In this document: piece after piece, positions 34,415 through 58,306 of the stretch
How the letters are laid out: the number at the start of each line of letters is the position of its first letter
Position numbering within the stretch: the stretch's first letter is position 1
Assembly (NCBI GenBank): GCA_011503125.2
Contig: WWBZ02000013.1
Span: forward strand, 248,001-312,000
DNA from: Botryosphaeria dothidea
Taxonomy: Eukaryota; Ascomycota; Dothideomycetes; Botryosphaeriales; Botryosphaeriaceae
Length of the DNA stretch: 64,000 nt
Direction: 5' to 3'
The notes under the pieces: model-generated
What the model was told of the DNA's origin: nothing
Database searches by the model: none
What the model saw: the letters and a program-made list of their open reading frames with translations, nothing else
Made by a program: the position numbers and the translations under genes

Positions 34415-34427
34415 CCCCCCCCCCCCC
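34415..34427 (+). repeat. Poly-C homopolymer, 13 C
   Basis: Thirteen consecutive C within the NACHT C-terminal region. Fourteen (or eleven) would keep the frame from the spliced upstream exon into SIDEALEDLPNDL. It marks either a true frameshift or a base-call error. Confidence 0.9.
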
Positions 34428-35699: not shown

Positions 35700-35741
35700 A
35701 CATCGAAGCCTCACACACCGAAGCCTCACACACCGAAGCTT
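35700..35741 (+). repeat. Short in-frame tandem repeat
   Basis: The 15 bp unit coding EASHT is repeated about 2.5 times, just before an in-frame TAA inside the ankyrin region of the NLR pseudogene. Local slippage is the likely origin. Confidence 0.6.
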
Positions 35742-37485
35742 AACTCAACCGAACAAATCTTCGTAGAATGATGTCGCGTGGAAATAAGCAGATTCATGAA
35801 GATCTGTTTCACACAGCTCTCCAGGCCGCCTCGTTCAGAGGAAGTGAAGAAACAGTCAGGTTGCTTCTCGCGTGGTACAAGGATCCAAATATCCCTGGTG
35901 GACTGTTCAATAGCCCACTTCAAGCTGCGGCAACAGTAGGCAACTTACCAGTGGTTCGGATGCTTCTCGCGCACGGAGCCGACCCAAATGCCACAGGGGG
36001 GTTTCATGGAACGGCTCTTATTGCATCTCTTAAAAGACAGACCACCAGCCATAAATCCATAGCAGAAATGCTACTGGAAAATAGTGCAATACCAATCCAC
36101 GGCGGACAAGAGCTTTGCAGCGCACTCAGACTTGGACTTGGAAGCGTCGCCATCAAAATAATCAGCAATGCCGCCAAGAAGACCAAAGGCGGCATGAGAT
36201 TTCACACAGTGAATACACTTCTCCAAGAGAGGCATAAAGGGGATGCTGCAACACCACTTCATCTCGCAGTGGTGGGGCTGCCACTCAAGATCACTCAGAC
36301 GATCCTTCAGAATTTTGGATATAAGGAGAAGCGAAAATTGCTCGAGGCGAAAGACAACCAAGGTATGACAGCCTTGCACTACGCTGCAACTTCTTCGCAT
36401 CAAGAAGATTCGCATTTACCAATCACATCGCTAGAGTATCTCATCGATGCAGCACGGGAAACCAATATCCTCAAAGAATACCTGTGCCTTCAAGATAAAG
36501 AGGGATCCACCGCGCTTCATCAGTCTACAGGGTATTCTGCTAGCACTATCACAGCCTTCGTGAGCCTTTTCCGAGCAGCCCGTGAAGCCGGGATCCTTGC
36601 GATGTACTTGGACATCCGAAATAATACAGGAAGTACAGCTCTTCACCAAGCTTCGTCCCGTGGTAAGGGTCCAGAAATCCAGATTCTGCTGCAAAAAAAA
36701 ATGCGAACGCGATGATTCGAGACGACCAAGGAAGATATTTTGTGGACTGCCTACCACCTTCTTGGCGGGAAGAAAAGGGGTTCTTCAGCGTCTCACCGCA
36801 AAATATCGGGCCGTTCAAGAACTCGGCAGACGAGGCTTCTGCAATAGCATTTGGGACTCTAATACACCACGCCATAGAGCTCACAAACTTCGATATGTTG
36901 AGCCGAATCACGCGCAGAGACACGTTCCGGCCTCGTGTCCTCGACATCCCGGAATCCGGGCGGGGAATGACGCCTTTGCATCTGGCTGTCGAGCAACGAG
37001 ACCACGAAATGGTGAACTTCTTGCTTTCAAAGGTAGCGAGTGTAGGGAGAGCGAACATGGAATGGAGGACCTCGCTACACCTCGCTGTCGATAATAGTTC
37101 CTTCGATATCGTGACAAGCCTGCTGAAAGGCTTGCTGGAGGGCCTGAGCGTTGAGGTGTACACGATACTCTTTGACGAGGCGGACTATCGCGAGGATGAC
37201 CGCGGGGTTTCGACTGACAGAGTCTTGGATACGGTGGACAAGTCCGGAAAAACGGCACTTCATTATGCAGCTGAAGGTGGAGAACTGAAAACTGTCAAGA
37301 GCCTCGTACATTGCGGCGCCACTTTAGACAAAGTGGATAAAACCGGGAGGATACCACGAGAGTATGCAAACCAGAAAAAGGATATTTACGAGTTTTTGAA
37401 GACCGAACAGCCTGCCCAAGGAATCAATCATGATCTCGGTCTGGAGGACTTTCAGGATGACAATGACCTCTTCGAGGAGAAATAA

Positions 37486-38166: not shown

Positions 38167-41100
38167 CTACCCACTCCCCACCGCATCAACCAAAAACCGC
38201 AACCCGGGCAGCACCCCCCTCTCCCACGCCCGACTCCCCGGCCGCGCCGCCAAATCGTGCAAATGCCTCGCCCCCTGCACCGGCAACCACCCGCACTCCC
38301 CGCCGCGCGCCCGCACCTCGCGCACGAACCGCTCCGCCGCGCCAAACGGCACCACCTCGTCCCTCTCGCCATGCACCACAAACGTCGGGACGCGGCACCT
38401 GCCCGCCCGCGCCTGCGCAACCGGACTGACATACTCCACGCGCGCCGCATCCACCGGCTCGCGCCGCAGCGCCGAGTCCAGCCCGTCCAGCACGACGCGC
38501 AGCCCCAGGCCGCGCTCGCGGAACATCGCGCACACCAGCTCCGCGCGCGCGTCGCCCGGCGCCATCCAGCCGGCCTCGCCGCCACCGCCGGGGACGTCGT
38601 AGCCCGTGAGGGCGCGGGCGCCGCGCAGCGCGTCGGCGATCTGCGCGAGGGAGAGCTGCCCCATGCCCGGCGCCGGCGGCGGCTGCGTGTCGGCCAGCGC
38701 CTCGAGCTCGCCGGAGGCGAAGTCGACGGGCGCGTAGAAGCTCAGGATGGCGGCGGGCGGGGGGGTGGCCGTCCAGGCGGTGGTGAGGGCGAGGTGGCCG
38801 CCGGAGGACCAGCCGAGGACGGCGAGCTTGGAGGGGTCGAGCAGGATGTTGTGGGGGGCGGCGAGGTGGGGGAGGGTGGTGCGCGCCCAGGTTAGGGCGG
38901 AGGCGACGTCGGCCATGGGGCCGGCGACGAGGTTGGCCTCGGGGCAGAGGCGGTAGTCGACGCTGACGGGGAGGATGGCGTGGGCGAGGAGGAAGGCGGC
39001 TTGGTGCGGGCGGATGTGGCGGCGCGTGAGGGTGATGTGGCCGCCGCCGTGGATCATGAGGGCTGGTGTGTTCAGCTACGAGCTGGGGGAGGTGGAGGGG
39101 CGCGGGGACGTACCGATGGCCATGTGTTTGGGGGTGGTGAGGCGGCGGGCCGGGTAGTATATGTCGGCGTGGATGGGCGTGTCGTCGACGGTCTTGTATA
39201 CGACAGTCTCGACGGAGAACTCGGGTGCGTGCGGAGTGAGGCTTTTGGCGGCTGGCGAAGGCTGAGAGCCGGCAACCGCCCGGTTTGAGGCGATCAGCAG
39301 TTGTTGCGAGTTGGACTCCCGCGAATGGCCGGTGGAGTACGACCACGAGGCAAACCCTGCCTTTTGGAACGTAGTCATCCAGGAGGACGCGGGCTGAATT
39401 GCGTACGCGCCACTGCAGTCCATCCACCACCCGTCGAGCAGCCCGAACACACTGTCGTACCAGTTGGCAACGTCAGTGATCTCAGACAGGACAAGCAGCC
39501 CCGACTCAGGACGGAGCAACGTCCGCAAGCGGGCGCATACTGCCATCCTATCCGACGTAGCGTGGACACAGTTAGTCCCAATGATGACATCAAAAGGGGC
39601 GCTGCCCACAGCTCCCGCCGCCACCGTCTCCAGATCCAGCATCTCGAACGACATGAATCGATGGTGAGCAAACTTCGCGGCGGCCTTCCTCACCAGCTTC
39701 GCCGACACGTCCGTGAAGACGTACTGCACCTCAATCTTCCTGAGCGCGACATACTGCTCGAGCAGCTCCGCGACCCGCGTCGTCGTCCCGCCGCTGCCAG
39801 CGCCCACCTCGAGGATGCGCACGACGGCCCCTTGGCCGCCGCGCTGCAGCACGCGCTCCAGAAACGCCACCAGCTGCTCCGTCATGGCCGCCATCATCGG
39901 CGAGTCGCGGTAGAACCGCGCCACCGTCTCCTGCGCGGCGGGGCTGCCGAACAGCAGCGCCACCGGATCCGCCCTGCCCGACAGGCAGGCCGCCAGGTGC
40001 GGGCCTGTCAGCGCCATGAGCTGCGCCTCGCACGCGAACGCGGGATGCTGGCGGGCAAAGTCGGCGCTGAGCTTGCTGGACGCTGCGCGCGGGAGGGCGC
40101 CCGCCGCTCTGGCGTACGTCTGGCCGATCCGCTCGACGACTCGGCTCTCCTCTAGAATCTTGAAGAAGCGGCCAACAAGTCGATTGTGCTTGTTGTTGTA
40201 CTTCAGCTCGGGAAGCAGCTGCCCGGGCGTGAGGGCGCGCAGGTCCGCGCCCATGTCAGCGAATGCCTCGACGATGTATGCCACAAGGAGGGATTCCTGG
40301 GCGGGGTTGGTGTCGGCCCAGTAGCGCGTGAATCCGCTTTCTTTTGCGTTTGTGTCGACGGTGTCCATGCTCTGGGCCAGCAGCATGTGGGCGCCGTCCA
40401 GGCAGACGCGCGGAGCATCGGCCGGCACATCGCTCTCGACGCATGTGATTGACTCATCGGTCTCTGGCGTCTGGTAGCCTGAGTCCGTAGTGGCAGAACT
40501 GGCTGTGTCGTCTGCGGGGGTCAAGAGGTTAAGGATGTCCTGCACAGTGGAAGCGGTGGAGATGCCCGCCTCGTCGAGCGTGAGGCCGAAGGCGTGTTCC
40601 AGCTCGTGCTTGAGCTCGACGAATGACAGCGAGTCAGCGCCGAGGTCAGCGAGACGGTCGGAGTGGCGGATCTCGTTGATCGGCGCGCCCGTGGCTTCGT
40701 GGACCATGTGGAGCACCTTGGGGAGGGACTCGTTGCTTTGAGATGCGGATGGTGCGGATGGTTCCTTGGTCTGCTCCGGAATCACCAGGCGTGGGATCTG
40801 TTGGACTTTGGCCGAGGCCGCGGCTGCTGGCTGATCCTTCAGCACAAGCATCACAATGTCCTGGACTGTGCCGCACAGCACGTCGTTCGAGCTGATTGTG
40901 ATGTCGAACTCGCTCGAGATGTCTTCGCTAAGCTCGACGGCGGCCAGTGAGTCAATGCCGAGGTCTGCCATGCTGGCATCGTTCTGAATGCTTGCAGCCG
41001 GGAGGCTGTTGTAAGTGGAGATGAGGTTCTTCAGTGTCTCGCAGACGGCGTCGGCCGAACGGACGTCTCCCGAGGGCGTCTCCTCCGAAGTGGTCACACA

Positions 41101-44100
41101 TGAGTCCTTCGCGGATTCATCTGCAACAAAATACGTCGGCAGAATTTCCACGTTGCTCGGCTGGAACACTCCCCTTCTCATGGGTGTTGGCTGAGAGGTT
41201 GCGGGCTCCACGGCAGTGCTGTTGGCGCCTTCGAGAAGCCTCTCCAGTTTGACAATGGGCAGTTGAGAGAACTGAACGCCGGCGAAGCTGCATACAAGCT
41301 CGCCAGAGCCGCGCGCCATGACGAAGACGTCTCCAGAGAATCTTCCCTGGGAGGCGTTGTTGTACATGGCGTACACCGTGTACTCCCGCACGGCATCGAA
41401 GTCGGCAGCGGCAGAGATCGTCGCCGACTCCACACCCGTCGCAACGCAGACACACTCATCGTCGACGTGAGTGCCGCTGTTGACCAGCAGCCCCAAGACC
41501 TGGATGAACGTGTCCAGCACAACCGTCTCGCAGGAGCGCGTGACGGTGCTCTGGCCGGGCTCCGCCGTGCAGGGCGGGACATTGACGGTGGCCAGCGCCT
41601 GGTCGGCGTCCATGACGATGTTCGAGATGCCCCTGAACATGGCGCTGTAGCGCACCACGCGCGAGAAGAGGCTGTAGGCGCGCATGGATGAGAACGTGTC
41701 GACGTCCTGCCGCGCCTTGAGGGCCTTCATCCGGTCGGCGACCAGGCGCTCGACTAGCTGGTTCTGCGGGCTGGCTTGGACGCCGATGCTGAGGTTGCCG
41801 GTGGCGTGTGTGTCGCGCTTCTTCAGCGCGGTTGACGAGAGGGAGAAGCGCCAGGGGCCTTGCGCGGCGGGCTGGTCGAGGCTCAGGAATGTCTCTCTCG
41901 ATGCGTCGATGCCCAGGGGAGCGCTGTATGAGACGTTGCTGAAGACGAGTGACTTGCCTTGGACATCTTTGCCAGCGAGCTGCACGGCCATCAGAGCGCA
42001 CTCCATATACAGAGACGCTGGACAGAGCGGCTTCCCGCGCACGGCGTGGCCTGAGACGAGGGTTGTGAAGCGCTCCGCACCGGTGTTGACCAGGAAGCGG
42101 CCCTCCGAGACTGACACGGGCGATACGAGGAATTGCGGCTTGTGAGGCTGAGTGGCCGGCTCGATGCATGGCTTCTGCATGGCTTTTGCTTCCTCAATCC
42201 GGTCGACAAACGGGAGCCAAGCGGTGGTGGACTTGTCGAACTGATATGGGGGAAGCCACACCTGCTGTAGGCGGGGGGTGTCGATGCCAGCGGAGGACGC
42301 AAATGCCCAAAACGAAACAGAGACATTCTGTTGCCAGAGCGAAGCCGTTGCAGCAGCCAGACCATGGGCGTCCTTGTGGGAGCTGAGCGCCTGAAAGACG
42401 TGACCGTCCGAGCGCGCGGTTGCGCGCTTGGCCATGGCGACAATGGGCGTGTCTGTGCCGGCCTCGAGGAAAACACATGGACCCAGGCGTGTCTCCACCC
42501 TTTGGATGGCTTGTTCGAAGTATACAGGCATCCGCGTGTGGTTGGTCAGATACTTGGAGCCGGCGATGGACACCCGATCTTCCGTGCATGTTTCCACGGG
42601 GATGCTTGGGACGCCGAAGCTCAGCTTGGCCGACAGATCCCCCAGGCCTGGCAGCAGTGGCTCGGTAAAGCGGGAGTGGAAGCCGTGGCTCACGTTGAGG
42701 CGCTGATGCTTGACGGCAGGGAAGTTCGATGACAGCACACGCTCCGTCTCGGTGATGCTGGCCGCTGTTCCAACAACCACCTGGCTTGTCGGCGCGTTAT
42801 AGCAGGCAACCTCGATGTCGGGCACCATGCGCTGCACCTTCTCCACCGTCTGGCGGTCGGCGTGGATTGCGAGCATGGTTCCGCGTTCGGCACCCCATTT
42901 GGTCTTCATCAGAGTTGCCCGGGTGGCAACGAGCAGGATACCATCCCGAAGAGAGAGAGCGCCAGAGACGGCGAGCGCTGTCAGTTCGCCGAAGCTGTGA
43001 CCGACAATGACATCCACCTTAAGTCCGCTGTCGATCCAGCACTTCGCGCATGAGTATTGCAGGGCAAACGTGGCGCACTGCAAGATTACTGGGTCCGAAA
43101 TTGCTTCTTCCTGGAATAAAGACGGAATTATGGACGGAAAGCCTTGCTGGGTGAGCATTTCATCGCAAAGGTCGACGTAACGGCGCAGAAGTGGTTGCGA
43201 ATCGTAGAGAGACCTGTTCAGGTGAACGTTCTGTTTGCTCTGGCCGGAGAAGAGGAGCACAACACCACGAGCTGGTGCGGAAAGCGGCTTGACGGACGCA
43301 GTACTCGTAGCCATGGCCGAAACGACTTCGGCGATGCTGGTCGCTGTCGTTGTCCACTGGTATTCGTGCTTCTTTCGACGTTCACTCAGCGTAAGTGAGA
43401 GATTCGCAATGTCCACGGCAGACCCGTGTTGCGACAGATGACTCTTGAGTACCGCCAGAGAAGCACTCAAACTCCGCTCAGAAGCCGCACTGACTCTCAG
43501 CGGGAACTTGGTGCCCTGATGCCTCTGAAGTCCTTGACGAGTGGGCGGCGGCGGCGGCTGGCAACATATCATAGCCGCATTACTCCCAGCAGCACCGTAG
43601 CTGCTGACAAGAGATGCCTTGAGCGGAGCATCCCATGGCTCCCGGGCGGTTGCGATGGCCAGACCATCGGGCTCGAGCGCCGGAATCTTTGGGTTCAAGG
43701 ACTCGAAACTGGCCTGCTTGGGAATCTTGCCGTGCTTCATCATCGCGAGAACCTTCAGCAGCCCGGCGACACCAGCCGCCGTCTCCAAGTGGCCGATGTT
43801 GCCCTTCACGGATCCAATCCGGAGAGGCCGTCTCCGCTGCGCCCCTCCAAACACCTCCCGCAGGCTCTCCACCTCCAGCGGGTCGCCCGCCTGCGTCCCC
43901 GTCCCATGCGCCTCGGCATACGTGACGTCCTCCGGCCGGAGGTGCGACTGGCGCAGCACATTCCGGTACAGCGCGACCTGCGCATCCCCACTCGGCACCG
44001 TCAACGACGCCGACAGGCCCCCCTGATTCGTCGCGACGCCCGCGACGACGCCCAGCACGGGATCGCCGTCGCGCAGCGCGTGCTTCAGGGGCTTCAGGAC

Positions 44101-46010
44101 CACCAGGCCGGCGCCCTCGGACCGGCAGTAGCCGTCCGCGCGCGCGTCGAACGGCTTGCACTGGCCCGTCTCGCTGAGGAAGCCGGCCTTGCCCAGGTCG
44201 AGGAAGTTCTGGGCGCCGGCCATGAGGTTAACGCCGCCGGCGAGGGCGACGGGGCACTCGCCGCTCTGCACGGCCTTGCAGGCGCGGTTGATGGCGACAA
44301 GCGAGGCCGAGCAGGCCGTGTCGATGACCTCGCTGGGGCCCGTCCAGCCGAAGTGGTAGGACAGACGGCCGCAGAGGAAGGCGCGGAGGGTGCCGGTCGA
44401 GGTGAAGGCGGTCGGGCCGTGGCACGCGGCGTTCTCGAGGTACTCGACGAAGGAGGCCGCGATGAAGCAGCCGACGGCGTCGCCGGCGGCGCGGTCGTGC
44501 GTGGCGAGGTAGCCGCTGGATTCGAGGGCTTGGTACGCGACTTCCAGGAGGAGGCGTTGCTGGGGGTCCATGTGCTGCGCTTCTTTGGGGGAGATGTGGA
44601 AGAAGGCGTTGTCGAAGGAGGCGGCGTTGTCGATGAAGTTGCCGTAGTAGGACCGCTTGTCCATCTTGCCGTCTACTTTGGCGCGGAAGTTGCCGGTGAT
44701 GTCGATGCGGGAGGGTGGCACGGGCTGGCAGGTGGAATCACCGCGGGAGAGCAGCTTCCATAGCTCCTGGAGGGAGTTTGCTCCGGGAACGCGGCATCCT
44801 GCTCCTATTATAGCAACAGCGTTGTCGGGGTATTGGTACTCGGTATGTTGTGAGATTTGCGTGGGGAGAGCGGACTCGGCCAGACTTCGCACATCTAATT
44901 TGGTTATTTGGACGCCGACCTGATTGAACGGGGCCATGGGAATGACGTCGCCAATGCCAAAGGATGCGATAGTATGCGAGGTTTCGCCTGAGCCCTTGAG
45001 GTCCTTTGCCATCTCCTTCATGAGGGTATGCCACTCGCAGCGTGCGGCCAGGATGGTCTGGACGCAGTCCATAGTCAAAGAATCACTGCCTCTAAGAAGT
45101 TCTCCTGTCTGGTTGGACCGCAGCGGAACTCTCAGCTCAGAGGCCCTGGGGAGCGTGAAGCTGGCGTGACTCTCGCAGAAGCGGCCGAGCTTGTCCGCAA
45201 GTTGTTTGTTCTCCGGGTTGTGCACTTTCCCGCGGAGATGGATCCCCTGCACGAACAACCCCATACTCTTGGCATACTCCGTGAGTGCCTTTAATGTCAG
45301 GACCGGTCCCACGACGCTGACACTCCTTGCGTCGGTATTCGCTGAATGATATGTCTGCGTGGATTGTGAGTGTCGCAGTGACGAATAAAAGGGATGGAAT
45401 GTGCACTTACTCCAGGAAATTTGCTGAGAAGTTCCTCAAGCTGACCAGGTCGTTTGGTTCTCGCCACAATGGTCGATGGACCGGGTATACTTTCGTCGTC
45501 GTCTCCAAAGTCGGCCGCCACGCCGATGGCGTATGCAATGCGCATGGCCACGCACGCCTGTCGGACGATGTCCTCCTCATCGCCCGCGCATGCGACCGCA
45601 ACGGCTGGCAGGATGCCGCCGCAGTATCCATGAGCGCCCCCCACCAGCCCCGCCATCAAATCGGCGTGTCGCATCTGTTTCGCTTCGAGGAACTGGAAGT
45701 ACTGGCACACTTGCATGACGACCAGGAGGGGAAGACAGACCGTTCCCGCCATGGCGTCCGCGAGGGGTGCAGATTCTCCATCTGCCACCCACTTCCGGAT
45801 TGCTTCTGTCCAGCGAGCCGAAGGAGGGAAGTTCCCGAACTCGTCGAACTCGGTGGTAAGGGCTCGCAAGTCACCTTGGAAGCCTTCGAGTGTGTGGAGA
45901 AGTGGCTGCAGGCGTTCATGTTGCGTGAGATATGAGCGTAAGCTGTCCAAGTAGGCCTTGGGTGTGCCTTTACTCTGGGGGCAAAAAATGGCTGCTGAAA
46001 TCATGACCAA
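38167..46010 (-). CDS. Non-reducing polyketide synthase, SAT-KS-AT-PT-ACP-ACP-CMeT-TE
   Basis: A 2578-residue iterative type I synthase from exons 46010-45411, 45354-39114 and 39062-38167 (56 and 51 bp introns; phases 0 and 1). SAT domain about 1-345 with nucleophile Cys130 in GYCGG. KS about 378-800 with Cys548 (TACSAS), His683 and His722. Malonyl-AT about 898-1180 with Ser987 (GHSFGE) and His1093. Product template about 1274-1566 with His1303 and Asp1481. Two ACPs with phosphopantetheine serines 1669 (GIDS) and 1775 (GADS). C-methyltransferase about 1890-2224 with SAM motif EVGAGSGG at 2049-2056. C-terminal alpha/beta-hydrolase about 2250-2578 with HGGG 2285-2288, Ser2366 (GWSSGG), Asp2515 and probably His2547. 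There are no KR, DH or ER domains and no reductive release domain, so a C-methylated aromatic carboxylic acid is expected, released by hydrolysis. All catalytic residues looked for are present. Confidence 0.95.
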
Positions 46011-46671
46011 TCGTAGTCGGTGGTGGGTATCTAATGCGGAAACTGAAGGAAACTAAAAGGGGGGGGTTGACAGCGAGTGTAGGTTTGTGAGTGCAAAGAG
46101 ATACTTGAGGAAACGAGATGCGTGCCCTGTAGACATGGGTTATAAAGAAATGGCCGTCGCTGAAGTCACGCCGGGAGCTACGACATGCAGAAATCAGCAG
46201 AGTAGATCGACCACGCTACCTCACGGTCTAGCCATATCGGTGGCGGACCCTAAATTGAGGCGATCCAAAGCACGGGCGCCGCTTAAGTCGAGTACGGGGC
46301 GCCTGGTCGTAAAGCGCTTGACCGGAAAGCTACCTACGTTGCGGCCGCCACGCCCGTGCGCAAAGTTACCATCGTTGTTCGAAATAGTACGCACTGGCGT
46401 CACCAAGGTTTTTCCCGAGGCGTTGCTGATGATTTGTTTGGCGTCGAGGCAGGGCCACGTCCACGTGTAGACTTCTTCCAGACCAACGCCGTCACTTCAT
46501 ACTTTGTTGGCCGTTGCAATGAGACGCTAGACATCGCTGCTATTTTCACTCACCGCAAATACACAACGACCTATTCAGTTTGAAACTTCGAATGCTCTTC
46601 AGTGACTTCATTCTCTGGCCAAGTGCGCCTTGCCCAAACTGTGCATCTTCTCGAATTTGTTACTCTGCAAA
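46011..46671. promoter_or_regulatory. Divergent promoter of PKS and P450
   Basis: 661 bp between the PKS start and the P450 start. It contains AAAGTTACCA at 46362-46371 immediately followed by CGTTGTTCG at 46373-46381. Both words recur in the other divergent promoter of the cluster. GC-rich palindromic words such as GCGGCCGC are also present. No known regulator site can be named. Confidence 0.5.
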
Positions 46672-48314
46672 ATGAATTCCCCGTTGCATTTCCCCGCAGC
46701 AGTGCAGATGCCGACTCTGTCACAGGCTTGTGTCTTTGCTACGCTGGCCTTTCTTATTGTGAGTAGTCCGGGGCGAGCTCCAGAAAAATCACTGATGAAT
46801 TGTCTCAGTTCTACTTCACCACGTCAATATACTATCTTTACTTCCATCCTCTCGCTGAATTTCCGGGACCAACATGCGCAGCTTTTTCTCGTCTGCCGCT
46901 TGCCGCAAAAACCTTTTCTGGCACCACGCACACTTGGATGCAACAACTCCACGTCCAATACGGCCCGATTGTCAGGATTGCTCCAGATGAACTTTCCACC
47001 ATTTCAGCAGAGGCATGGAGCGACATTTACAAACCCAGATACTCGCTTCCAAAAGACCCTTACAGCCTTCTCCCGCCTCTCAATGGATCACATTCACTGT
47101 TCACTGCACGTGGCGCCGAGCATAGGCGGCTTCGCAAGACGTTCACTCCGGCCTTCACTGAGAAAGCCCTCTCCCAGCAAGCTTCAATCATCGAGTCATA
47201 TGTGGATCTGTTCATCCACCGTCTCCGCAAAGAGACGGCAAATGTCAAGGGCAACAGCATAGACATTGCCAAGTACTTTGGCTACGTTGCGCTGGACATC
47301 ATCGCCGACCTTGCCTTCGGAGAGAGCTTCCACGGTATCGAGGGCGACAACGAGCACAACTGGATCCAGGGCTTCTTCCTGGGAGCCAAGTTCGGCAACA
47401 TTCGCAACTGCCTCAACCATTTCCACCCACTCGAAGTGCTCTTTGGCATGCTCTTCCTTCGCGTCACAGCAAAGAACCGCGCGCGAAACTGGGCGCTCAC
47501 CGACGCCAACGTCACCAAGCGGCTCGAGATGGGCGACCTGGGCAAAGAGCGCTCCGACTTCATGACGCCGTGCATCAACAACCTCGGGGCCGACACCATC
47601 ACCCGCCAGGAGCTCAACTCCAACTCCCTCGGCTTCATCATCGCCGGCTGCCAGCTCCCGACCATCACGCTCTCCACCGCGACCCACCAGCTGCTCACGA
47701 ACCCGCGCACCCTCCACCGCCTGATGCACGAGGTCCGCTCCGCGTTCGCCGCCGAGCGCGACATCACCGTCGCCTCGACGAAGGACCTCCCCTACCTGCG
47801 CGCCGTCATCCTCGAGACCCTCCGCCTCGAGCACCCCGCGCCGACGCAGCTCGCGCGCGTTGTCCCGCCGCAAGGCCACGTCGTCGCCGGGCGCTGGATC
47901 CCGGGCGCCGCCGTGATTGGCATGGCCATCCAGGCCATCCAGCGAAGCCCGCTGCACTGGGTCGCTCCCGACGAATTCCACCCGGAGCGCTTCCTCGGCG
48001 CCGAGCACGCGCACCACGACGCGCGGTTCGCGGGCGACAACAAGGAGGCGTTCCGCCCCTTCTCGATGGGCACGCGGCACTGCATCGGGTACAAGTGAGT
48101 ATTGTCGCCTTTCGCACCGCCTCGTCTCTCTTTGGCTAACGTGCGTCGAACCAGGGTCGTGCTTGCGGAGGCCCGGGTCATCCTGGCGCGCATCTGCTGG
48201 AACTTTGAGCTGCGCCTCGACGGAGACACGCCGGCCGATTGGATGGAGAAGCGGGCGTTCTTGGTCGTGGAGGCAAAGCCGCTTATGGTTGAGCTTAGTG
48301 AGAAAGCTTTTTGA
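46672..48314 (+). CDS. Cytochrome P450 with non-canonical I-helix
   Basis: A 510-residue microsomal P450 from exons 46672-46758, 46809-48094 and 48155-48314. The N-terminal anchor is QACVFATLAFLIFYFTTSIYYLYFHPLAEFPGP with the usual proline-rich hinge. ExxR is ETLR at about 365-368. The heme-binding loop is FSMGTRHCIG with thiolate Cys454. In the I-helix, where the family has AG(S/T)ETT, this protein has AGCQLPT (about 308-314): the acid is Gln and the following Thr is Leu. This pair normally delivers protons for O-O cleavage, so ordinary hydroxylation may be altered. Alternative in-frame starts are 46630 and 46708; 46672 has an A at -3. It is divergent from the PKS and very probably a tailoring enzyme of its product. 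Confidence 0.92.
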
Positions 48315-48907
48315 GTGTGTGTTGGGCGGTGACCTCGGGGAGGGTGGTTCGTGTCTCGGGTGCAGTGAGCGCTGCTATTCATTTTTTGATGGTTTAGATT
48401 TCTCTTTTCGGGAGTGGATATCACGCTGTTCAGACAATCCTCCTCTCTGACGTGCCCATGCCAATTGCAGTGCACGTAGAGATTCTGGTGCGGAGAGGCG
48501 GAGCACTCTACCGAGTCAAGACTACGAGCGAACACTCGGAGCATTTGAGTTCAGAGCTAGGAGAAGAGAATAACACCAACGTCTCTAAGCGGCTAAAACC
48601 TGCCACCTGCAAGATCAATGCGACGTACGAATACACAAGGGTCTAAATTCCACCCACGGTTCACCTGCAACTTTACTATCAGTCCGTGCACTTCTAGAAG
48701 CCTGTCGGCTCCACATCTGGCCCTGTTTGAGAGATATAAAAGCTATTTCGGCAAAAATATCCGACCATCCAACCCTCAAATAGACAACCATTAGCGAAAG
48801 CCACTTCGTGTAGCTGAAGCATATTCAAAGTTTAAAGAATACTTTCAGGGAGAAAAAAAGTTGTCGAGTGTTCAGAGTCCGGAGAGATCCTTCGTCGCCT
48901 CCAAACC
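48315..48907. promoter_or_regulatory. Upstream region of the FAD oxidase gene
   Basis: 593 bp between two rightward genes. GATATAAAAG near 48733-48742 could serve as a TATA element. No gene recognised, and the two words shared by the divergent promoters were not seen here. Confidence 0.4.
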
Positions 48908-50508
48908 ATGATGAGGTCCTCATTCTCCTTTCTCTCTCTTCTTCACCTGGCGTACGGTCAATGTGACCAGGCCGCAAGCTATTTCGAATCAGCCTTGTCC
49001 TCAGAATCACAGATCTTCTTCCCGAACGCAGCCAACTACAGCGACAATGTCATTCAAAGATGGAACACGTACCCAACGCCATCATTCGCCTTGGCCGTAA
49101 AGCCGAACGACGAGACCGACGTCCAGAAGATCGTAAGCCGAATGCCGCCAGTGCTCACAACTCAGCACCCATCTGACCCCTCCACAGGTCGCCTACTCGC
49201 GCCAAAACAACATCTCCATCCTCGCCCTCGGCGGCGGCCACGGCGGCACCACCACCCTCAACACCATCCAAAACGGCATCCTCATCGACCTCAGCGCCTT
49301 CTCCACCGTCGCCATCGCCCCCTCGCAAAACCGCCTGACCGTCGGCGGCGCCGTCCGCTTCCGCGACGTCCTGCCGCCGCTGCAGCGCGCCGGCAAGGAA
49401 CTCCCCGTCGGCAGCTGCTCGTGCGTCGGCATGACCAGCGCCGCCCTGGGCGGCGGCATCGGCGCGCTGAACGGGAAGCACGGGCTCATCCTCGACTCGC
49501 TCGAGTCCGTCCGGATGGTGGTCGGGACGGGCGCGGCCGTGACGGCGTCTGCGACGGAGAACCCCGACCTCTTCTGGGGCGTGCGCGGGGCCGGGCACAA
49601 CCTGGGCGTCGTCACGGCCTCGACGTTCCGCGTGTACGACGCCACGAACGGCGGGGTGGTGCTCAATGCCGACATGCGCTTTGCGCCGGCCGCGAACCGG
49701 AGTGTTTTTGACGTCTTGGAGGCGTTTGGGCGCGGGCAGCCGGACGAGCTGGCGCTGACGCTGTCGTGGAAGTACGATGCGGAGGGGTGCGGGGGGACGT
49801 GTCTGCTGCTGAACGCCATTTACGCGGGCCCGAGTGAGGACGGGGTGCGCTTGCTCCAGCCGTTCTTTGATCTCAGGCCGTATGCGCAGAACGTCTCGAC
49901 TGTTGCGTGGGCTGACTCGCTGAAGGTGGCGCGGTTTGGCTCTGATAGCAAGGCGTGTACGACTGGCCGCCCGCATAGCGTGTGGAGCGCTAATCTGTAC
50001 ACGTTTGACACGGGGGCGTTTGGCCGGGCGTTTGACTACTATGATGCTACGGTGGTGTCTGGGCAGGGAAAGCTGGATGATAGCGGCCTTACGCTGACGA
50101 TGAATGGCGTGAGCGGCATTACCGCTATCCCTGACGACGAGACAGCGTACGCACATAGGGATGCTAGAGCTTTCTTGTAAGTGGAACGTCCTGGGTCTCA
50201 TGCTCACTGCCTTTAATGGTACTTCACTGGGTCGGTCCGCCTGAGCTGACGTAACTCACAGTTACTTCGACATCAAAACGAAAGAGCCCTCCGTGCGAGA
50301 GCAAGCCGACAACATGGGTAGGGAGATTCGAGCTATCTTGGCCGAGACTTCCGGTTCCCCAAGTGGGAAGCTGGACGTGTATGTCAATTTTGCACACGGC
50401 GATGAGGAACCTTCGGCAGTGTACGGCGAGAGGAAGTTGCCCAAGCTGAAGAGCTTGGTGGCGAAATATGATCCGGATAGGCTGTTTAGCCATTTCAACA
50501 ACTTTTAG
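48908..50508 (+). CDS. Secreted BBE-type FAD-linked oxidoreductase
   Basis: A 486-residue protein from exons 48908-49132, 49188-50176 and 50262-50508, phases consistent. A signal peptide (MMRSSFSFLSLLHLAYGQ) routes it to the secretory pathway. The FAD-binding PCMH-type domain is clear: GGGHGGTTT with His93, the expected covalent flavin attachment, then GSCSCVG (Cys152/Cys154, in the zone where the second covalent link occurs in bicovalent members), LGGGIGALNGKHGL and WGVRGAGHNLGVVT. The C-terminus has the berberine-bridge-like pattern NFAHGDE..SAVYGE....L..LK..YDP...F. Members oxidise alcohols or form C-C and C-O bonds in alkaloid and polyketide pathways. Position between P450 and dioxygenase supports a tailoring role. 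Secretory targeting suggests a vesicular or extracellular step. Confidence 0.92.
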
Positions 50509-50856
50509 CGGAGACAAATTCTTGTATCCTTGATCGTTTTTATAGAAGGAGATGTAGATATAGATGTTCAACCTGACCTGGAAGTCATGACTTCGTGAGT
50601 GACACCCCGCACGCCGCACTTACCCGGAGACATAAGGTGAGATGACGTGCGGCCCCCTTTGATTTCCTTGTTGGTACTGGACCTTCAGACATATTGCACT
50701 GCGATGTCAATACTCCAGTTGTGTTTCTTCACTGCACAGGTTTATGATGGATGTGATGGGCATTTGACAGGTCTATTTCTTGCGCACATACAAAGAGAAC
50801 ACCTCTATCCATTCTTTACACAACCCTGGAAACCAGCTCCTCCACTCTTCCCGTCT
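50509..50856. other. Intergenic between convergent genes
   Basis: 348 bp tail-to-tail spacer between the FAD oxidase and dioxygenase-like genes. Nothing but 3' end signals expected. Confidence 0.45.
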
Positions 50857-52060
50857 CTACTTATCCAGTGTCAAAACCGTCTTTTCCTCCTCCCTCTTCT
50901 GGAGCCTACTCTTAAACCCCCTCAACTTCCAATGCTTCCACTCGTCACTCGTCATGACCGGCCTCGCCGCCTCCTCCGGCGTCAACTCCGGAATACACGG
51001 ACTCCTCAACGGCGTCATGCGCACATCATTGTTCGGCCTGGTCCCCACAAGCACACTATACCGATCCCACCGCGCCTGCTCCCCCGGCGCCCTGACAACC
51101 CTGTGTAGCCCCGACTTCAGCACCTTATTCGTCAGCACCTCCATCGCGTCGCCGAGATTGACGATCGCGCACCCGGGCACCGGCTCCACCCAGCGCCAGC
51201 TCTCCTCGGGCACGCTGTCCGGCCCGCCGCGCCAGGCGGCCTCGTTGTCGGCGGAGATCTGCAGGCCACCGAGCCAGTTGAACAGGATGGCGACGCTGAT
51301 GGCGTCCTTGTGGGCGGGGAAGGTGAGCTGGTCGGCGAGGCCCGGCTGCTGGCGGACGGCGTGCAGGAGGCGGACGTAGTCGCTGGAGGGGACGGCCAGC
51401 TGGTGCGCGGCGGTCAGGGTGTCCGCGGGCAGCTGCAGGCCGTGCTCGAGGATGGCGAAGAGGCGGCGCGCGATGCGGTTGCCGCTGGACATGGTGGCCG
51501 CGAAGAGGGAGGTGTGCGGGGCGAGCCAGGGAGGGAAGCCGAGGTCGCCGCGCGGCGTGGAGAACATCTCGTCGGCGGGGATCTGGGGGTGTGAGTTGGG
51601 AGAGGTGCGTTCGGGGCGGGGGTCTCACGTTGATGTTCTCGTTGAAGCGGACGGTGCCGTCTTCGGTGAGGAATTTGGTGAAGTAGCTGGATCTATGTTA
51701 GCACAGGTGCTTTTGTTGTCGTGGAGGGGGATCTCACCCTTTGTCGAGAACAGCATCGGGTCCTCTCATCTTGTATTGCCTCTTCTGTTCCAGAGGCAGC
51801 TTGAAAACATCCATTCCTGCCCGACAGCATGAAACTGCATTCTTCAACAGCTCCCTGCCGTCCGGGTGGTCGGTGAGGTCGAGCTGGAAGAAGCCGGCCT
51901 CCTTGAAGATGTTCATGACCTTCTGGGCCTCGTTGTTGTCATTCGCAATCAGCTTTGCTAGGGAAATCACTTCGAGTCTGACAGTAGGAACATTTTTGGG
52001 AAAGGGAGCCGGATAAAGGTCCTCCATGCCAAATTCCTTGATGATCTTTTGTGTGTCCAT
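50857..52060 (-). CDS. 2-oxoglutarate/Fe(II)-dependent dioxygenase-like protein (isopenicillin N synthase family)
   Basis: A 368-residue protein from exons 52060-51738, 51686-51629 and 51582-50857, phases consistent. The N-terminal DIOX_N half has VPTVRLEVISLAKLI, FKEAGFFQLDLTDHP and LPLEQKRQYKMRG, as usual for this family. The double-stranded beta-helix core carries the iron ligands His218 and Asp220 in PAHKDAIS and His287 in SGLHRVV, with the oxoglutarate-binding pair Arg301 and Ser303 in RYS. All are present, so an active hydroxylase, desaturase or ring-modifying enzyme is expected in the cytosol. The small second exon (58 bp) is easily missed. It is divergent from the efflux pump gene and probably shares its control region. 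Confidence 0.92.
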
Positions 52061-52528
52061 GATGATGTTGCGTGAGTGTTTGCAGTGTCAGTGGCTGCTC
52101 AAGCGTCGTACTTTAATGATGGATGGTCTAAATACATTTGCATAGTTCCTTGTTCTCTAAATTACAATGCAGCTCTAAAGTAGACAGCAGATAGCGGCTT
52201 CATCGCACCCAGTCGTTGGAAGCCACGAAAACCATGCTGCACACCCGAGGCCCCTGGATTGAACAAGTGGGAAGGGTTCAGCCGGCGGAAACTTTAAATG
52301 CGCATGGGCTTAAGGCGGTAGCGTTGTTCGTAAAGTAAAGTTACCAGCGTAGCGCATAGCGAAGGTCCCTGCGCAGAAGGTTTGCCACCGTTGCTTCTCA
52401 GCTACGCGCTAATGAAACCTACCATCAGCCCTGTGCTCGGCCTGGACCAGGACCCAGACATTAAGTCGTCAATCTGTTGACCGCTACGTGCTCCATTCAA
52501 CCGCCGCTGTCGTCTACACCCAAGCACG
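52061..52528. promoter_or_regulatory. Divergent promoter of dioxygenase and efflux pump
   Basis: 468 bp. It contains CGTTGTTCG at 52322-52330 and AAAGTTACCA at 52337-52346, the same two words as in the PKS/P450 promoter, here in reversed order and 6 bp apart. Candidate pathway-regulator site; no known factor can be assigned. Confidence 0.5.
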
Positions 52529-55095
52529 ATGTCAAGAGACAACGACCAATTGTCGAAAAGTGGAGCCCTCGAGGGACGCCAGAAACCGGAGCACTGGCTA
52601 CAGATGATGGAATGGAGCAAACAACCAGAGAATTGGTCAAGACCCACAACGGCATTTTTCTCCGGTAGCAGACCTACAACAGCTTGTACTGGCATCAACA
52701 GACCCGCAACTGCTTGGACTACAGACACTCTCAGAGAACACAATGATTCCTCGGTTACGCTCGTGCCTCTGGTTCCCGGCAGGGACGTGGAGCACTCGCA
52801 AAAAATGCCATATTTCAACGAGCAGACAAAATATTTGACGAGAAGAAGGATTATCATGGTACATAATCAGTGTGCTTCATGCGGGAATGGTATCTCACGC
52901 GCTCTCAGGTGTTCGCTGGCTGCGCGCTAGTCAACTTCGGCGCGTTCCTTGACCAGACCAGTCTTGCAGCAGCGCACGTCGTGGTAGGTCGGGCATTGAA
53001 CGCCGGAGACAACATGACTTGGATCACTGGGGCTTATTTTGTGTAAGACTAAGCTTATCTTCCTAATACCCCACATTACTGATCGAGGCATGCAGCACGT
53101 CGACAGCATGCCAGCTGCTCTACGGCAGGTTGAGCGACGTCTTTTCACGCAAGGTTGTGCTACTTTCCTGCATTGCCATCTTTTTCCTCGGCTCGCTTGC
53201 ATCATCATTGGCACAAAATGCCATGCAGTTGATCCTTTTCCGGGCTCTCACCGGTATTGGCGGAGGCGGACTTGTGACTGGGTCGCAGATGATTGTGAGC
53301 GATGTAGTCCCATTGCGAGAGCGAGGCAAGTATCAAGGGATACTGGTAAGGAGTCAAATTCTCTCCCCTATTTCGAGCAGGTTTTGATTGAGTCCGAGGC
53401 TTCCGCCATGGCTATTGCAAACGCAGTTGGCCCAATCCTGGGAGGCGTTCTAGCTTCACAATCACCCCAGTCATGGTCAGTACTTCAACGGATTGATGAC
53501 TGAAGACGTGTCTCTTACAACTTTGACAGGCGCTGGATTTTCCGTTTGAACCTGTCTCTCACTGCCTTCATGGTCTTGGCTGTTACTTTCTTCATGCCTC
53601 TGCGTCGCGTTCAAGGAAGTTGGAAAGCGTAAGTTCCATCATCTATTCGGTCAATGAATATATCCCTGACTCGTCATCGAAGCAAGCTTCAAGCAATAGA
53701 CTTTTTCGGGGCCTTGCTTGCTCTGGCAGGCTCTGTTGTTCTTACTGTAAGATAATCAAAATCGTCCTGAATGCCCTCTTGCTGACAAACTCTTCTTGAG
53801 CAGTTGGGCCTGACATGGGCTGGCGGACAGCATCCCTGGGTGTCTGTGCAGGTTGTCTCGACCTTGGCAGTGGGTGGATTTCTCTCAGCCTTATTCGTCC
53901 TTTGGCAGTGGAAGGGTGCAAAATTTCCCTTGATCCCAAGTAAGACATGGCCACGATGCACTTCTTGACGGGATAACTGACCTTTGTATAGTGCATGTCT
54001 TCAAAAGCAAGCTTGTGTGTGGTGGTTGCATAACGATGTTCATCCACGGATGGCTTTTCATGGTGCAGATGTTCTACATCCCAACACTCTACCAACTTGT
54101 TTACGGCTTTTCGGCCACCGAAGCGGGCTTGCTGTTGCTTCCGGTCACGCTTGCTCAACGTAAGTTCTCTTCCACTCTCAGGCCTTCACTTTGGGCCCTT
54201 ACTGATTTTGAAAGCTTTCTGTGGCTCTGTCTCTGGCGCCATCACAAGTTGGACCGCCCGTTACAAGGTTCGTAACCAGATGATATGTCATGGTCATGAC
54301 TGGGGCTAATTATCGATAGGAAAACATGTGCATTGGGTGGGCACTGTGGTCGATTGGACTTGGACTTCTCTCAACCATTACAAAGGGTTCAACGCTGGCT
54401 GAACGTATCGGGTTCGCTTCTTTGACAGGTATTGGAGCTGGCTTGACATTGCAATCGTAAGTTCTGACGGAACAGTCCCATCCAATCACACTTCTCTGTC
54501 ATACTCACATTGACAGGTCCCTTATAGCTATGCAAGCAGGGGTTGAGAGAAAGGAAATGGCCGTGATAACATCATTTCGGAAGTACGCTGCATGGCACAA
54601 ATTTGGAGTATTTCTTGCTGATCTTCAGTAGTTTCATCAGGAATTTCGGATCGACTCTTGGGCTTGCTGCAACTGCAACGATGATGTAAGGCATCCCTAC
54701 GTCCTGCACGTCCAACCTCTAGCGCTGATCACAAGATTTGCAGCAACAACTCTGTCCAGCACTCATTCAAGTCAGCCGGCCTTTCCACCACACAGGCAGT
54801 TCTCAGAGCCTACACCATCCCGAGTGACGACAAAACTCGGGAAGCATTGATCTCCGGATATCAGAGCGCGTTTAGAGCTGTCTTCATTACCTTGGCAGTC
54901 TTGGGAGCACTGGCATTCTTTCTAGCGTTAATACTGATACCGCAGGTCAGTTTGAAAAGGCCCGATGACAACAAGTTCAAGGAAATAAAGCCGTGGAAGG
55001 ATATTGTGAACCCAGCACCTCCTGGGTTTCTTCCACCAAAGGCTGCTTTAATCTTGGGCATCTCGAAAGACCCCAAGTGCGCGTTTTCTGTATAG
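52529..55095 (+). CDS. MFS drug/metabolite efflux pump, DHA2 (14-span) type, 13 exons
   Basis: A 639-residue protein from exons 52529-52858, 52909-53042, 53096-53345, 53399-53475, 53530-53628, 53683-53746, 53804-53939, 53992-54159, 54215-54267, 54320-54456, 54517-54582, 54632-54685 and 54744-55095; every phase closes. A long polar N-terminus (about 110 residues) precedes the membrane part. Motif A is YGRLSDVFSRKV, and the antiporter motif C region is NAVGPILGGVLASQ. GIGGGGLVTGSQMIVSDVVPLRERGKYQGIL is diagnostic of the toxin/drug efflux group. FMVQMFYIPTLYQLVYGFSATEAGLLLLP is the usual segment of 14-span members. It probably exports the polyketide product and gives self-protection. Some of the small exons are inferred mainly from frame and family pattern; the exon 8/9 acceptor at 54214 was preferred over a nearer one that would leave a 22 bp intron. 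Confidence 0.9.
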
Positions 55096-56665: not shown

Positions 56666-58306
56666 CTAGTGAACAGGCTTGACCTTTACCATCAGTGCCG
56701 GCTTGTGCCAGATGATGAAGGCTTTCTGATCCAACCAGTTGTTGCTCTCCGGGCAAAGCTCTAGATCGAAATGCCAGAGTATGTTTGCCATGATGATGCG
56801 CATTTCATGGTACGCGAGAATGTGTCCACGAGTCAGTACACGAAACACTCGATGCGGTCAGATTGCACCTACTTCTTGCCTAAGCAATTGCGCGGTCCGA
56901 ATGAGAAGGGCTGGAGCACCTCCTTCCTGTCAGAGTCGTATTGGCTGTCGCCCAACCATCGTTCAGGAACGAAGGAATCGGGGTCCTTGAAGTTCAGCGG
57001 GGAGTGGTAAGCCACATAGTGGTAGATATTAAGGCTCGTCTGCACACGGTCAGCTTGACTTAAAACGGCCCTGTATGGTTGCATGACGTGCCCGTTCTGG
57101 CAGCCACTCCCCAAGGACGGCGCTTCCGCCTAAAACAGTTTCGCGCGGCATAGCGACAGGGACCGGGGGATACAGACGAAGCGTTTCTTCCAAACAGGCC
57201 TGCAGATACGACAGTCGTACTACGCCGTTGAAGGTAAGCCCGTCCTTAGGCAGGGCGCGCACTTCGGCGATTGCCTTGGCCATCTTGTCCGGGTTTGTCA
57301 AGAACAGATAAGTGAGTCCGCTTAGCAGTGTCGCTGTAGTCTCTGAGCCGCCAACCATGAAGATCTCAGCGTTAGCATACTATTCTAATAGAGTAAGCTT
57401 GCCGTCAGCTTTCTTGAAGATGAGGTCCCAGATGTCTGGACGGTCGACGCCACTGTTCAATCTCTTGTCCACGCGATCGCTCGTGTGCCGGCGGTGCAGC
57501 TTCTACTTCTCAATCAAAGTCTTTGGCGTGAAGAGGTCGATAATCTTGGCGAGGGCTGGGTATTCCAGAGTGAGGGAGAGGATAGTGCCGGTCATCATAT
57601 GCGCGAAGATAGACTTCACCCACGGGGAGAGCTCGGAGGACTCGAGGAGACCAAGCGATTCCCTGAACACTAGGTCCGCGATGATGTCGAAAGTGGTGCA
57701 GTTGTACAGCTCAACTAGGTCCACCACAGCACCGGTCCTTCTCGCACTCTTGTCGATGATGCCGACAAGCTTGTCCACATACTGAATGATCAGAGGCTCC
57801 TGCTGTCTCAAGGCCTTGTCACTAAAGGCGTTTGAGAACATCTTCCGAAGCCGCCCGTGTTCCTCGGTATTTGCAATGGTAAGGATACTGTGTTGGCCAT
57901 TCTCTCCTGGGATAAAGAAACTGGTGTGTTTCGTGTTCTCTAACTTCCCGTGTGCGCGATGACCGCGAATATCCTTCCAGGCCTGAGGGTTGATGTAGCT
58001 GACTTTGTTTGAGCCGATGCGCACGACCTCGCCATACTTTTCGTGCTGTTTCTGGCACCAAGGAAGGATATCTCCGGGAATAATGCCATACCAGTAGACG
58101 AAGCTGGTTGCTGCGACAAGTTTCGATCCAGAGACAACGAGGGGTGTTAGCCTTTCGTGCAGATCAGTGCTTGTAGAGTGCCTACGCTTGCTCAGTGGAT
58201 GAAAACACATGTTGTAAATCGAATTCGTAATTGCCGCAGACATGACCTGCAGAAAGACGTTATTAAATGGTAACGGGCTTTGCAAATTTGCCATCCATAC
58301 TGCCAC
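56666..58306 (-). pseudogene. Cytochrome P450 pseudogene
   Basis: Most parts of a P450 remain in order: the anchor-end IYNMCFHPLSK, WYGIIPGDILPWCQKQHEKYGEVVRIG, LRKMFSNAFSDKALRQQEPLI, an intact I-helix VGGSETTATLLSG, ExxR in [31 protein letters not shown], the heme loop [12 protein letters not shown] and a C-terminal part ending MVKVKPVH. Breaks: TAG at 57503-57505 after TLIEK and TAG at 57380-57382 after LTLLE, both continuing in the same frame. The first intron after HPLSK has lost a recognisable acceptor, and the intron after GEWLPE no longer closes in frame. The final intron after GKK is still plausible. Both TAG codons could come from CAG by one C-to-T change. It is a different subfamily from the cluster P450, judging by the I-helix. 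Confidence 0.8.

What the first reader, a model, noticed from the sequence alone, without database searches (positions are those of the whole stretch)
38167..55095. Compact intact NR-PKS cluster with an unusual trio of tailoring oxidases
Seen: five adjacent open genes, namely NR-PKS with C-methyltransferase and hydrolytic release, P450, secreted BBE-type FAD oxidase, 2OG/Fe(II) dioxygenase-like enzyme and DHA2 pump. Known: NR-PKS products of this plan are C-methylated orsellinic-type acids. Inference: three mechanistically different oxidases acting on one aromatic acid could give ring expansion, dearomatisation or oxidative coupling. I do not recall a characterised cluster with exactly this set, so it may make an undescribed compound.
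Basis: partly seen in the sequence, partly recalled or inferred. Interest (0 to 1): 0.78.

Follow-up and report, generated by a model that had tools for sequence, protein, structure and literature searches.

The report
Likely depsidone gene cluster, extra oxidases
Five neighbouring genes of an unnamed filamentous fungus look like a known type of pathway that fuses two small aromatic acids into a bridged depsidone, with two added oxidation enzymes whose role is not known, so the core is familiar but the exact product may be new.

Summary
The five genes are real and intact at 38167-55095: NR-PKS (SAT-KS-AT-PT-ACP-ACP-CMeT-hydrolase), P450, signal-bearing BBE oxidase, 2OG oxygenase, MFS pump. Its two members that I recognised as characterised, MollE/MollD and pRosJ/pRosK (44-45% and 44-53% identity), make a C-methylated didepside or close one to a depsidone. 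In the P450 tree the root of all sampled homologues separates ProsK from a clade holding MollD and the window protein. These P450s lack the usual I-helix acid-alcohol pair: Q-L in 114 of 120, D/E-T/S in none; 20 of 27 other P450s of the genome have D/E-T/S. Best reading: didepside, depsidone, then ring-methyl oxidation by 2OG enzyme (top fold match thymine 7-hydroxylase) and BBE oxidase; the last two steps are inference. Tropolone-type ring expansion is not supported. Close homologues of PKS, P450 and 2OG exist in Macrophomina phaseolina and Paraphoma; I found no described product. A new variant of a known kind.

The parts
38167..46004 (-). NR-PKS, SAT-KS-AT-PT-ACP-ACP-CMeT-alpha/beta hydrolase, 2576 aa; exons 46004-45411, 45354-39114, 39062-38167
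   Evidence: homologues
46005..46671 (.). 667-bp region between the divergent PKS and P450 genes
   Evidence: coordinates; no 8-base word shared by the three intergenic regions tested
46672..48314 (+). P450, 510 aa; exons 46672-46758, 46809-48094, 48155-48314; I-helix AGCQLPT (Q311, L312) in place of AG.D/E-T
48908..50508 (+). BBE-type FAD oxidase, 486 aa, N-terminal signal-like stretch, His93 and Cys152 as likely FAD anchors; exons 48908-49132, 49188-50176, 50262-50508
50857..52060 (-). 2OG/Fe(II) oxygenase, 368 aa, His218-X-Asp220 ... His287; exons 52060-51738, 51686-51629, 51582-50857
   Evidence: orthologue P0001:
52529..55095 (+). MFS (DHA2/TRI12-like) transporter, 640 aa, 13 exons; GC3 0.56 against 0.77-0.83 in the other four genes

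Best explanation
A depsidone biosynthetic cluster of the C-methylated (beta-orcinol) type with two added oxidases. (1) The NR-PKS builds two C-methylated tetraketide rings (3-methylorsellinate type), using its two ACPs, and joins them into an ester-linked didepside such as 4-O-demethylbarbatic acid: inferred from homology. (2) The P450 couples the two rings oxidatively (phenol C-O coupling) to the depsidone, for example hypoprotocetraric acid: inferred from its place in the tree and the lost acid-alcohol pair. (3) The 2OG enzyme hydroxylates a ring methyl (benzylic position) and the BBE oxidase takes the alcohol to an aldehyde, acid or lactone, possibly outside the cell: inference only. (4) The MFS pump exports the product: inference. 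Confidence 0.7 is for steps 1-2; for step 3 as written I would give about 0.4.
For: PKS 45.2% to MollE and 43.8% to ProsJ over about 2460 positions, as far as these two are from each other (43.7%); tandem ACPs and the motifs checked agree. P450 52.8% to MollD, in a clade with it (28 members, node support 0.95); the next deeper splits separate ProsK. Adjacency: 20 of 74 typed PKS entries share a contig length with a typed P450 entry; 12 of these 20 have neighbouring locus tags (read off). pRosJ alone gives 3-methylorsellinic acid and the depside, pRosK the depsidone (PMC10691236 section 5); MollD and DepG install the ether bond (PMC11320064). I-helix: Q-L in 114 of 120 listed homologues, D/E-T/S in 0 of 120; control in the same genome 20 of 27 alignable P450s with D/E-T/S, 0 of 27 Q-L. 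Model of the Macrophomina 2OG orthologue (pLDDT 90.9): first of 796 PDB matches is Neurospora thymine 7-hydroxylase, which oxidises a ring methyl (chemistry recalled).
Against: No product is known. The PKS is not inside the clade spanned by MollE and ProsJ but in a sister branch (support of the large group 0.55), and its nearest outside relative, P0148 of Periconia, has no methyltransferase domain in the Pfam list; five Talaromyces members without one also sit in the tree. The P450 clade spanned by MollD and ProsK (support 0.93) is the whole ingroup of 71, chosen by similarity to the window protein, so being inside it is a modest test. 7 of 27 control P450s also lack D/E-T/S, so loss alone is not special; Q-L is. 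The thymine 7-hydroxylase match is about 20% identical and a plant oxygenase follows at nearly the same E-value. No BBE or 2OG gene is named in the roseopurpurin section or the DPE paper parts that I read. No Amidohydro_2 gene within 60 kb of the window; to which family the known depsidone decarboxylases belong I did not learn. No shared promoter word. MFS differs in GC3 and may be an unrelated neighbour. BBE orthologues were not searched.
Confidence: 0.7

Rival explanations
1. The PKS releases a monomer (3-methyl- or 3,5-dimethylorsellinic type acid) and P450, 2OG and BBE oxidise that one ring: dearomatisation, ring expansion or ring cleavage; ring cleavage to botryodiplodin-like products is the sub-case suggested by the Macrophomina homologues.
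For: CMeT plus hydrolytic release also occurs in monomer-making PKSs (recalled: AusA, MpaC); pRosJ also made free 3-methylorsellinic acid.
Against: The two characterised relatives that I recognised among the listed hits belong to didepside/depsidone clusters. 2OG only E 0.029 to TropC and 0.06 to SpoC. No ring-cleaving dioxygenase or FAD monooxygenase family among the matches of the five proteins. Paper search for botryodiplodin with gene cluster: 12 papers, none announcing such a cluster in title or abstract start; the gene cluster passages of PMC9944435 shown concern mellein.
Confidence: 0.15
2. Depsidone cluster, but the BBE oxidase does the unusual chemistry (coupling or dearomatisation) and the 2OG enzyme another hydroxylation or a demethylation.
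For: Best PDB sequence match of the BBE is EncM (E 1.1e-33), a flavoenzyme of polyketide rearrangement (recalled); SorD, of sorbicillinoid biosynthesis (recalled), matches over residues 29-481 (E 1.3e-22).
Against: The EncM match covers mainly residues 26-225; carbohydrate oxidases such as ChitO and GOOX match over residues 60-482 with better E-values than SorD. In the printed alignment EncM has Val where the window protein has Cys152, so the flavin linkage probably differs.
Confidence: 0.2
3. The P450 pairs with the PKS but does not close the depsidone ring, or acts as a hydroxylase, and the cluster product is a modified depside.
For: 44-53% identity leaves room for other reactions; the window protein forms its own sub-clade with the Macrophomina and Paraphoma proteins.
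Against: Loss of the acid-alcohol pair with Q-L is shared with MollD and ProsK; it is more readily reconciled with coupling than with ordinary hydroxylation (inference).
Confidence: 0.12

Closest known systems
Roseopurpurin cluster core, pRosJ/pRosK (Phaeosphaeria sp.) and rosJ (Aspergillus uvarum)
   Same: CMeT NR-PKS plus P450 of the same families; the first two products are depside 4-O-demethylbarbatic acid and depsidone hypoprotocetraric acid
   Different: Decarboxylase, second P450, reductase, O-methyltransferase, glyoxalase, transcription factor and CDK-like gene; no BBE or 2OG gene named in the section read
Mollicellin cluster, MollE/MollD (Ovatospora)
   Same: P450 52.8% and PKS 45.2% identical; didepside PKS and ether-forming P450
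   Different: Has prenyltransferase MollF; I saw only part of its gene list, the original paper was not held
Dpe (Preussia isomera) and Dep (Aspergillus sp.) clusters
   Same: Didepside PKS and ether-forming P450 logic
   Different: dpe starts from the lecanoric-acid-type didepside and adds decarboxylases, hydrolase, methyltransferase and tyrosinase; sequences were not compared here
Botryorhodine depsidones of Lasiodiplodia/Botryosphaeria (compounds, no genes)
   Same: Formulae of botryorhodine C (C17H16O6) and B (C17H14O6) equal decarboxylated hypoprotocetraric acid plus one O, and the aldehyde (arithmetic); structures were not compared
   Different: No decarboxylase seen in the window cluster; no gene link known to me
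Thymine 7-hydroxylase (Neurospora crassa)
   Same: First fold match of the 2OG orthologue, TM 0.67/0.75; stepwise oxidation of a ring methyl (recalled)
   Different: 20% identity; other substrate; other oxygenases score nearly as well

Membership tests
Didepside-forming CMeT NR-PKS (MollE/pRosJ type) | SAT-KS-AT-PT-ACP-ACP-CMeT-TE with the checked catalytic motifs intact | tested here: met
Didepside-forming CMeT NR-PKS (MollE/pRosJ type) | Falls inside the clade spanned by MollE and ProsJ | tested here: inconclusive
   outside it, as sister branch with weak support (0.55); identities equal to those between MollE and ProsJ
Didepside-forming CMeT NR-PKS (MollE/pRosJ type) | Makes a didepside | not testable with these tools
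   needs expression
Depsidone-forming P450 (MollD/pRosK) | Inside the clade spanned by MollD and ProsK | tested here: met
   support 0.93, rooted on five P450s of the same genome; that clade is all 71 sampled homologues, so the test is modest; with MollD and without ProsK in a clade of 28, support 0.95
Depsidone-forming P450 (MollD/pRosK) | Gene next to a depside-type PKS gene | tested here: met
   window coordinates; that the PKS is of depside type is itself inferred
Depsidone-forming P450 (MollD/pRosK) | Q-L in place of the acid-alcohol pair (signature found here, not an established criterion) | tested here: met
Depsidone-forming P450 (MollD/pRosK) | Ether bond formation | not testable with these tools
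   needs expression
Tropolone ring-expansion pair (TropB/TropC, SpoC) | 2OG enzyme clearly homologous to TropC or SpoC | tested here: not met
   E 0.029 and 0.06
Tropolone ring-expansion pair (TropB/TropC, SpoC) | FAD monooxygenase of the salicylate hydroxylase type in the cluster | tested here: not met
   none among the five proteins
Bicovalent BBE-like FAD oxidase | FAD_binding_4 plus BBE domains, His and Cys flavin anchors | tested here: met
   anchor assignment recalled

The most novel reading that the evidence does not exclude
The cluster makes a lichen-type beta-orcinol depsidone whose ring methyls are oxidised by a 2OG enzyme and a secreted flavin oxidase in relay, a gene-level lead for that methyl oxidation; and the P450s of this family couple phenols without the acid-alcohol pair, so that Q-L marks depsidone synthases and predicts them in the many uncharacterised lichen and fungal clusters that carry it.
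Probability: 0.3. Interest if true: 0.6.

Novelty: new variant of a known kind. Interest (0 to 1): 0.42.

Why it matters
It turns an open-ended three-oxidase cluster into a testable depsidone pathway with predicted masses, and offers candidates for ring-methyl oxidation, a step that would give depsidones their aldehyde or alcohol groups. The Q-L signature, if it holds in enzymes of known activity, would help to recognise depsidone synthases among P450s that carry only names such as benzoate 4-monooxygenase.

Tried and rejected
Botryodiplodin cluster idea (Macrophomina homologues, C-methylated orsellinate): no such gene cluster in the titles or abstract starts of 12 papers, and the PKS/P450 pair points elsewhere; rejected as the main reading.

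Ring expansion: rejected (TropC, SpoC at noise level) and the missing FAD monooxygenase.

Co-regulation by a common promoter word: the three intergenic regions share no 8-mer (0.2 expected) and three 7-mers (2.6 expected); no support.

Horizontal transfer: Macrophomina and Paraphoma PKS are 75.1% alike, window and Macrophomina 67.0%; for P450 the order differs (window-Macrophomina 85.9, Macrophomina-Paraphoma 83.0), for 2OG it is 83.4 and 87.0.

GC of the four enzyme genes (GC3 0.77-0.83): five of eight other window exons tested have GC3 of 0.81-0.95 in the frame that I took as coding, so not taken as foreign DNA.

The first gene prediction had a bad intron cost and stopped with an error; replaced and corrected by hand. 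The first PKS tree had an outgroup that was not monophyletic; replaced.

The BBE was not searched for orthologues: all three protein database searches went to 2OG, PKS and P450.

On checking this report I changed: the P450 tree claim (the clade spanned by MollD and ProsK is the whole ingroup), the BBE matches (SorD also covers nearly the full length), the sister protein without methyltransferase, and the list of entries left out.
Full report
What is there. Gene models from a small splice-aware predictor, corrected by hand, give five intact genes: PKS 46004-38167 (-), P450 46672-48314 (+), BBE oxidase 48908-50508 (+), 2OG oxygenase 52060-50857 (-) and MFS pump 52529-55095 (+). The introns of the final models are 46-85 bases with GT-AG ends. 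PKS/P450 and 2OG/MFS are divergent pairs. Left of the PKS are NACHT/ankyrin-type reading frames (32.8-37.5 kb), right of the pump a small secreted-protein-like frame and a second P450 with the ordinary I-helix motif (names from my reading of the translations).

Domains and active sites. Pfam gives SAT, KS, AT, PS-DH (product template), phosphopantetheine sites, HTH_51 plus methyltransferase, and alpha/beta-hydrolase in the PKS. Against ProsJ and MollE the motifs checked in SAT, KS, AT, PT, both ACPs, CMeT and TE are kept or nearly so; the Macrophomina protein is partial and lacks the TE part. P450, BBE, 2OG and MFS families are confirmed.

Relatives. Three protein database searches were allowed; each lists its best 120 hits (of 234 for 2OG, 7919 for PKS, 664 for P450). 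2OG: Macrophomina phaseolina 84%, Paraphoma chrysanthemicola 79%, a metagenome fragment 98%, then 56% and less over most of the length. PKS, scored on residues 1-700: Macrophomina 76%, Paraphoma 73%, then about 57% and less, with ProsJ 54% and MollE 52%. P450: Macrophomina 86%, Paraphoma 76%, a metagenome fragment 98%, Lasiodiplodia 57%, MollD 53%, ProsK 44%. The BBE was not searched, so its conservation is unknown.

The PKS-P450 pair. 20 of 74 PKS entries share a contig length with a P450 entry. Twelve of these 20 pairs have comparable locus tags and are neighbours by tag (eleven by one step, one of them in a numbering by tens; one by two), for example Botrytis aclada EAE96_010883/010881 and Lecanora helva ACLMJK_000005/000004 (read off). 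The other eight have no comparable tags. Two unnamed pairs also share a length (P0187/P0274, P0153/P0339). For the other 54 the listings, cut at 120, say nothing either way. Two named pairs are characterised: MollE/MollD and ProsJ/ProsK.

What those pairs do. PMC10691236 (section 5 and passages read): pRosJ alone makes 3-methylorsellinic acid and the depside 4-O-demethylbarbatic acid; pRosK turns it into the depsidone hypoprotocetraric acid; the ions reported are 347.11 and 345.10, which fit C18H18O7 and C18H16O7. PMC11320064 (parts 1 and 2 of 3 read): MollE makes a didepside, MollD and DepG install the ether bond. PMC8533459 (passages and section 26): the PKS uses two ACPs for the two rings and a linked P450 makes the ether; [quoted passage not shown]

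Trees. PKS tree with 97 sequences, rooted on two other CMeT PKSs of the same genome: window, Macrophomina and Paraphoma form a clade with support 1.0; it joins one Periconia protein (0.88), which by its Pfam list lacks the methyltransferase, and this group is sister to a large group of 71 (0.55) that holds MollE and ProsJ. So the PKS is not bracketed. It is 45.2% and 43.8% identical to MollE and ProsJ, which are 43.7% identical to each other. P450 tree with 76 sequences (71 homologues of 440 aa or more including the window's, and five P450s of the same genome as root): the deepest split of the homologues (0.93) separates a group of 32 with ProsK; the window protein lies in a clade of 28 with MollD (0.95). 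It is thus between MollD and ProsK, but that clade is the whole sample.

A signature in the P450s. At the I-helix place where most P450s carry an acid-alcohol pair, 114 of 120 listed homologues have Q-L, three E-V, and one each A-L, S-L, L-I; none has D/E-T/S (motifs printed). Control: of 29 other P450 loci from the same genome (the best 30 of 101 matches less the window's own), 27 could be aligned; 20 have D/E-T/S, 7 do not, none has Q-L; three of the 27 duplicate another. The pair serves proton delivery in hydroxylation, and some phenol-coupling P450s lack it (both recalled; the OxyA passages that I saw, do not state it). I take the replacement as in line with C-O coupling. I have not found it described for depsidone P450s, but no search was made for exactly that, and the mollicellin and DepG papers were not held.

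The two extra oxidases. The 2OG enzyme has the iron ligands. A model of its Macrophomina orthologue (P0001, 36-sequence alignment, pLDDT 90.9) matches Neurospora thymine 7-hydroxylase first (E 5.1e-19, TM 0.67/0.75, 20% identity), closely followed by a plant oxygenase (E 7.3e-19). Thymine 7-hydroxylase oxidises a ring methyl in steps (recalled), which suits the C-methyl groups of a depsidone, but the match is distant. The BBE's nearly full-length PDB relatives include carbohydrate oxidases (ChitO, GOOX) and SorD; EncM is first by score but over the FAD domain mainly. Benzylic alcohol oxidation is my inference. Formula check: botryorhodines C and B of Lasiodiplodia (C17H16O6, C17H14O6; passages of PMC7405015) are what decarboxylation plus alcohol or aldehyde formation on hypoprotocetraric acid would give; I did not compare structures, and this does not show that the cluster makes them.

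Against. No product, no expression data, no BBE orthologue search, MFS with a different codon bias (GC3 0.56 against 0.77-0.83), no shared promoter word, no Amidohydro_2 gene nearby (the nearest on C9 is at 381032, about 69 kb right of the window).

Uniqueness in the genome. By E-value the next P450 match is 35% identical, the next 2OG match 38% over part, the next BBE match 42% over part. Three CMeT PKSs were found by the HTH_51 domain; the two others are 33-38% identical to this one.

Verdict. Most likely a depsidone cluster of known core type with an unusual combination of tailoring oxidases. The search for papers with depsidone, biosynthetic gene cluster, 2-oxoglutarate and FAD gave one paper, by its abstract start on another PKS group (listing only); Macrophomina, depsidone, depside and Paraphoma (three of four) gave three reviews (listing only). 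So the exact set seems undescribed in what I could search, while the first two steps can be predicted.

Noticed in passing
window 56872-58339 (-) and about 60100-61100 (-), 62822-64000 (+): Second P450 with the ordinary GGSETT I-helix, and GMC-oxidoreductase-like frames (my reading); they look like separate neighbours. Frames further right (L054) include a P450-like and an O-methyltransferase-like one.
   Followed up: partly
G000:C9:184501-194400 (L052) and C9:332927: Contig C9 carries another CMeT NR-PKS about 58 kb left of the window and another ketosynthase 21 kb to the right: a region rich in polyketide genes.
   Followed up: partly
G000 contigs C36/C78, C3/C12, C4/C11, C36/C69: Several family matches occur twice with identical scores on different contigs, some with stops: segmental duplication, haplotypes or assembly redundancy.
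   Followed up: no
window 32774-37485 (+): NACHT and ankyrin-repeat type reading frames directly left of the PKS, possibly with a nucleoside-phosphorylase-like N-terminus (my reading).
   Followed up: no
homologues P0121, P0122, P0001, P0002, P0241, P0242: Between window and Macrophomina the P450 and 2OG are 83-86% identical but the PKS only 67%, ACP region 53%: the PKS changes much faster than its partners.
   Followed up: partly
P0003 and P0243: Metagenome fragments 98% identical to the window's 2OG and P450 are listed with contigs of 41273 and 41274 bases, so this fungus or a close relative is present in environmental samples.
   Followed up: no
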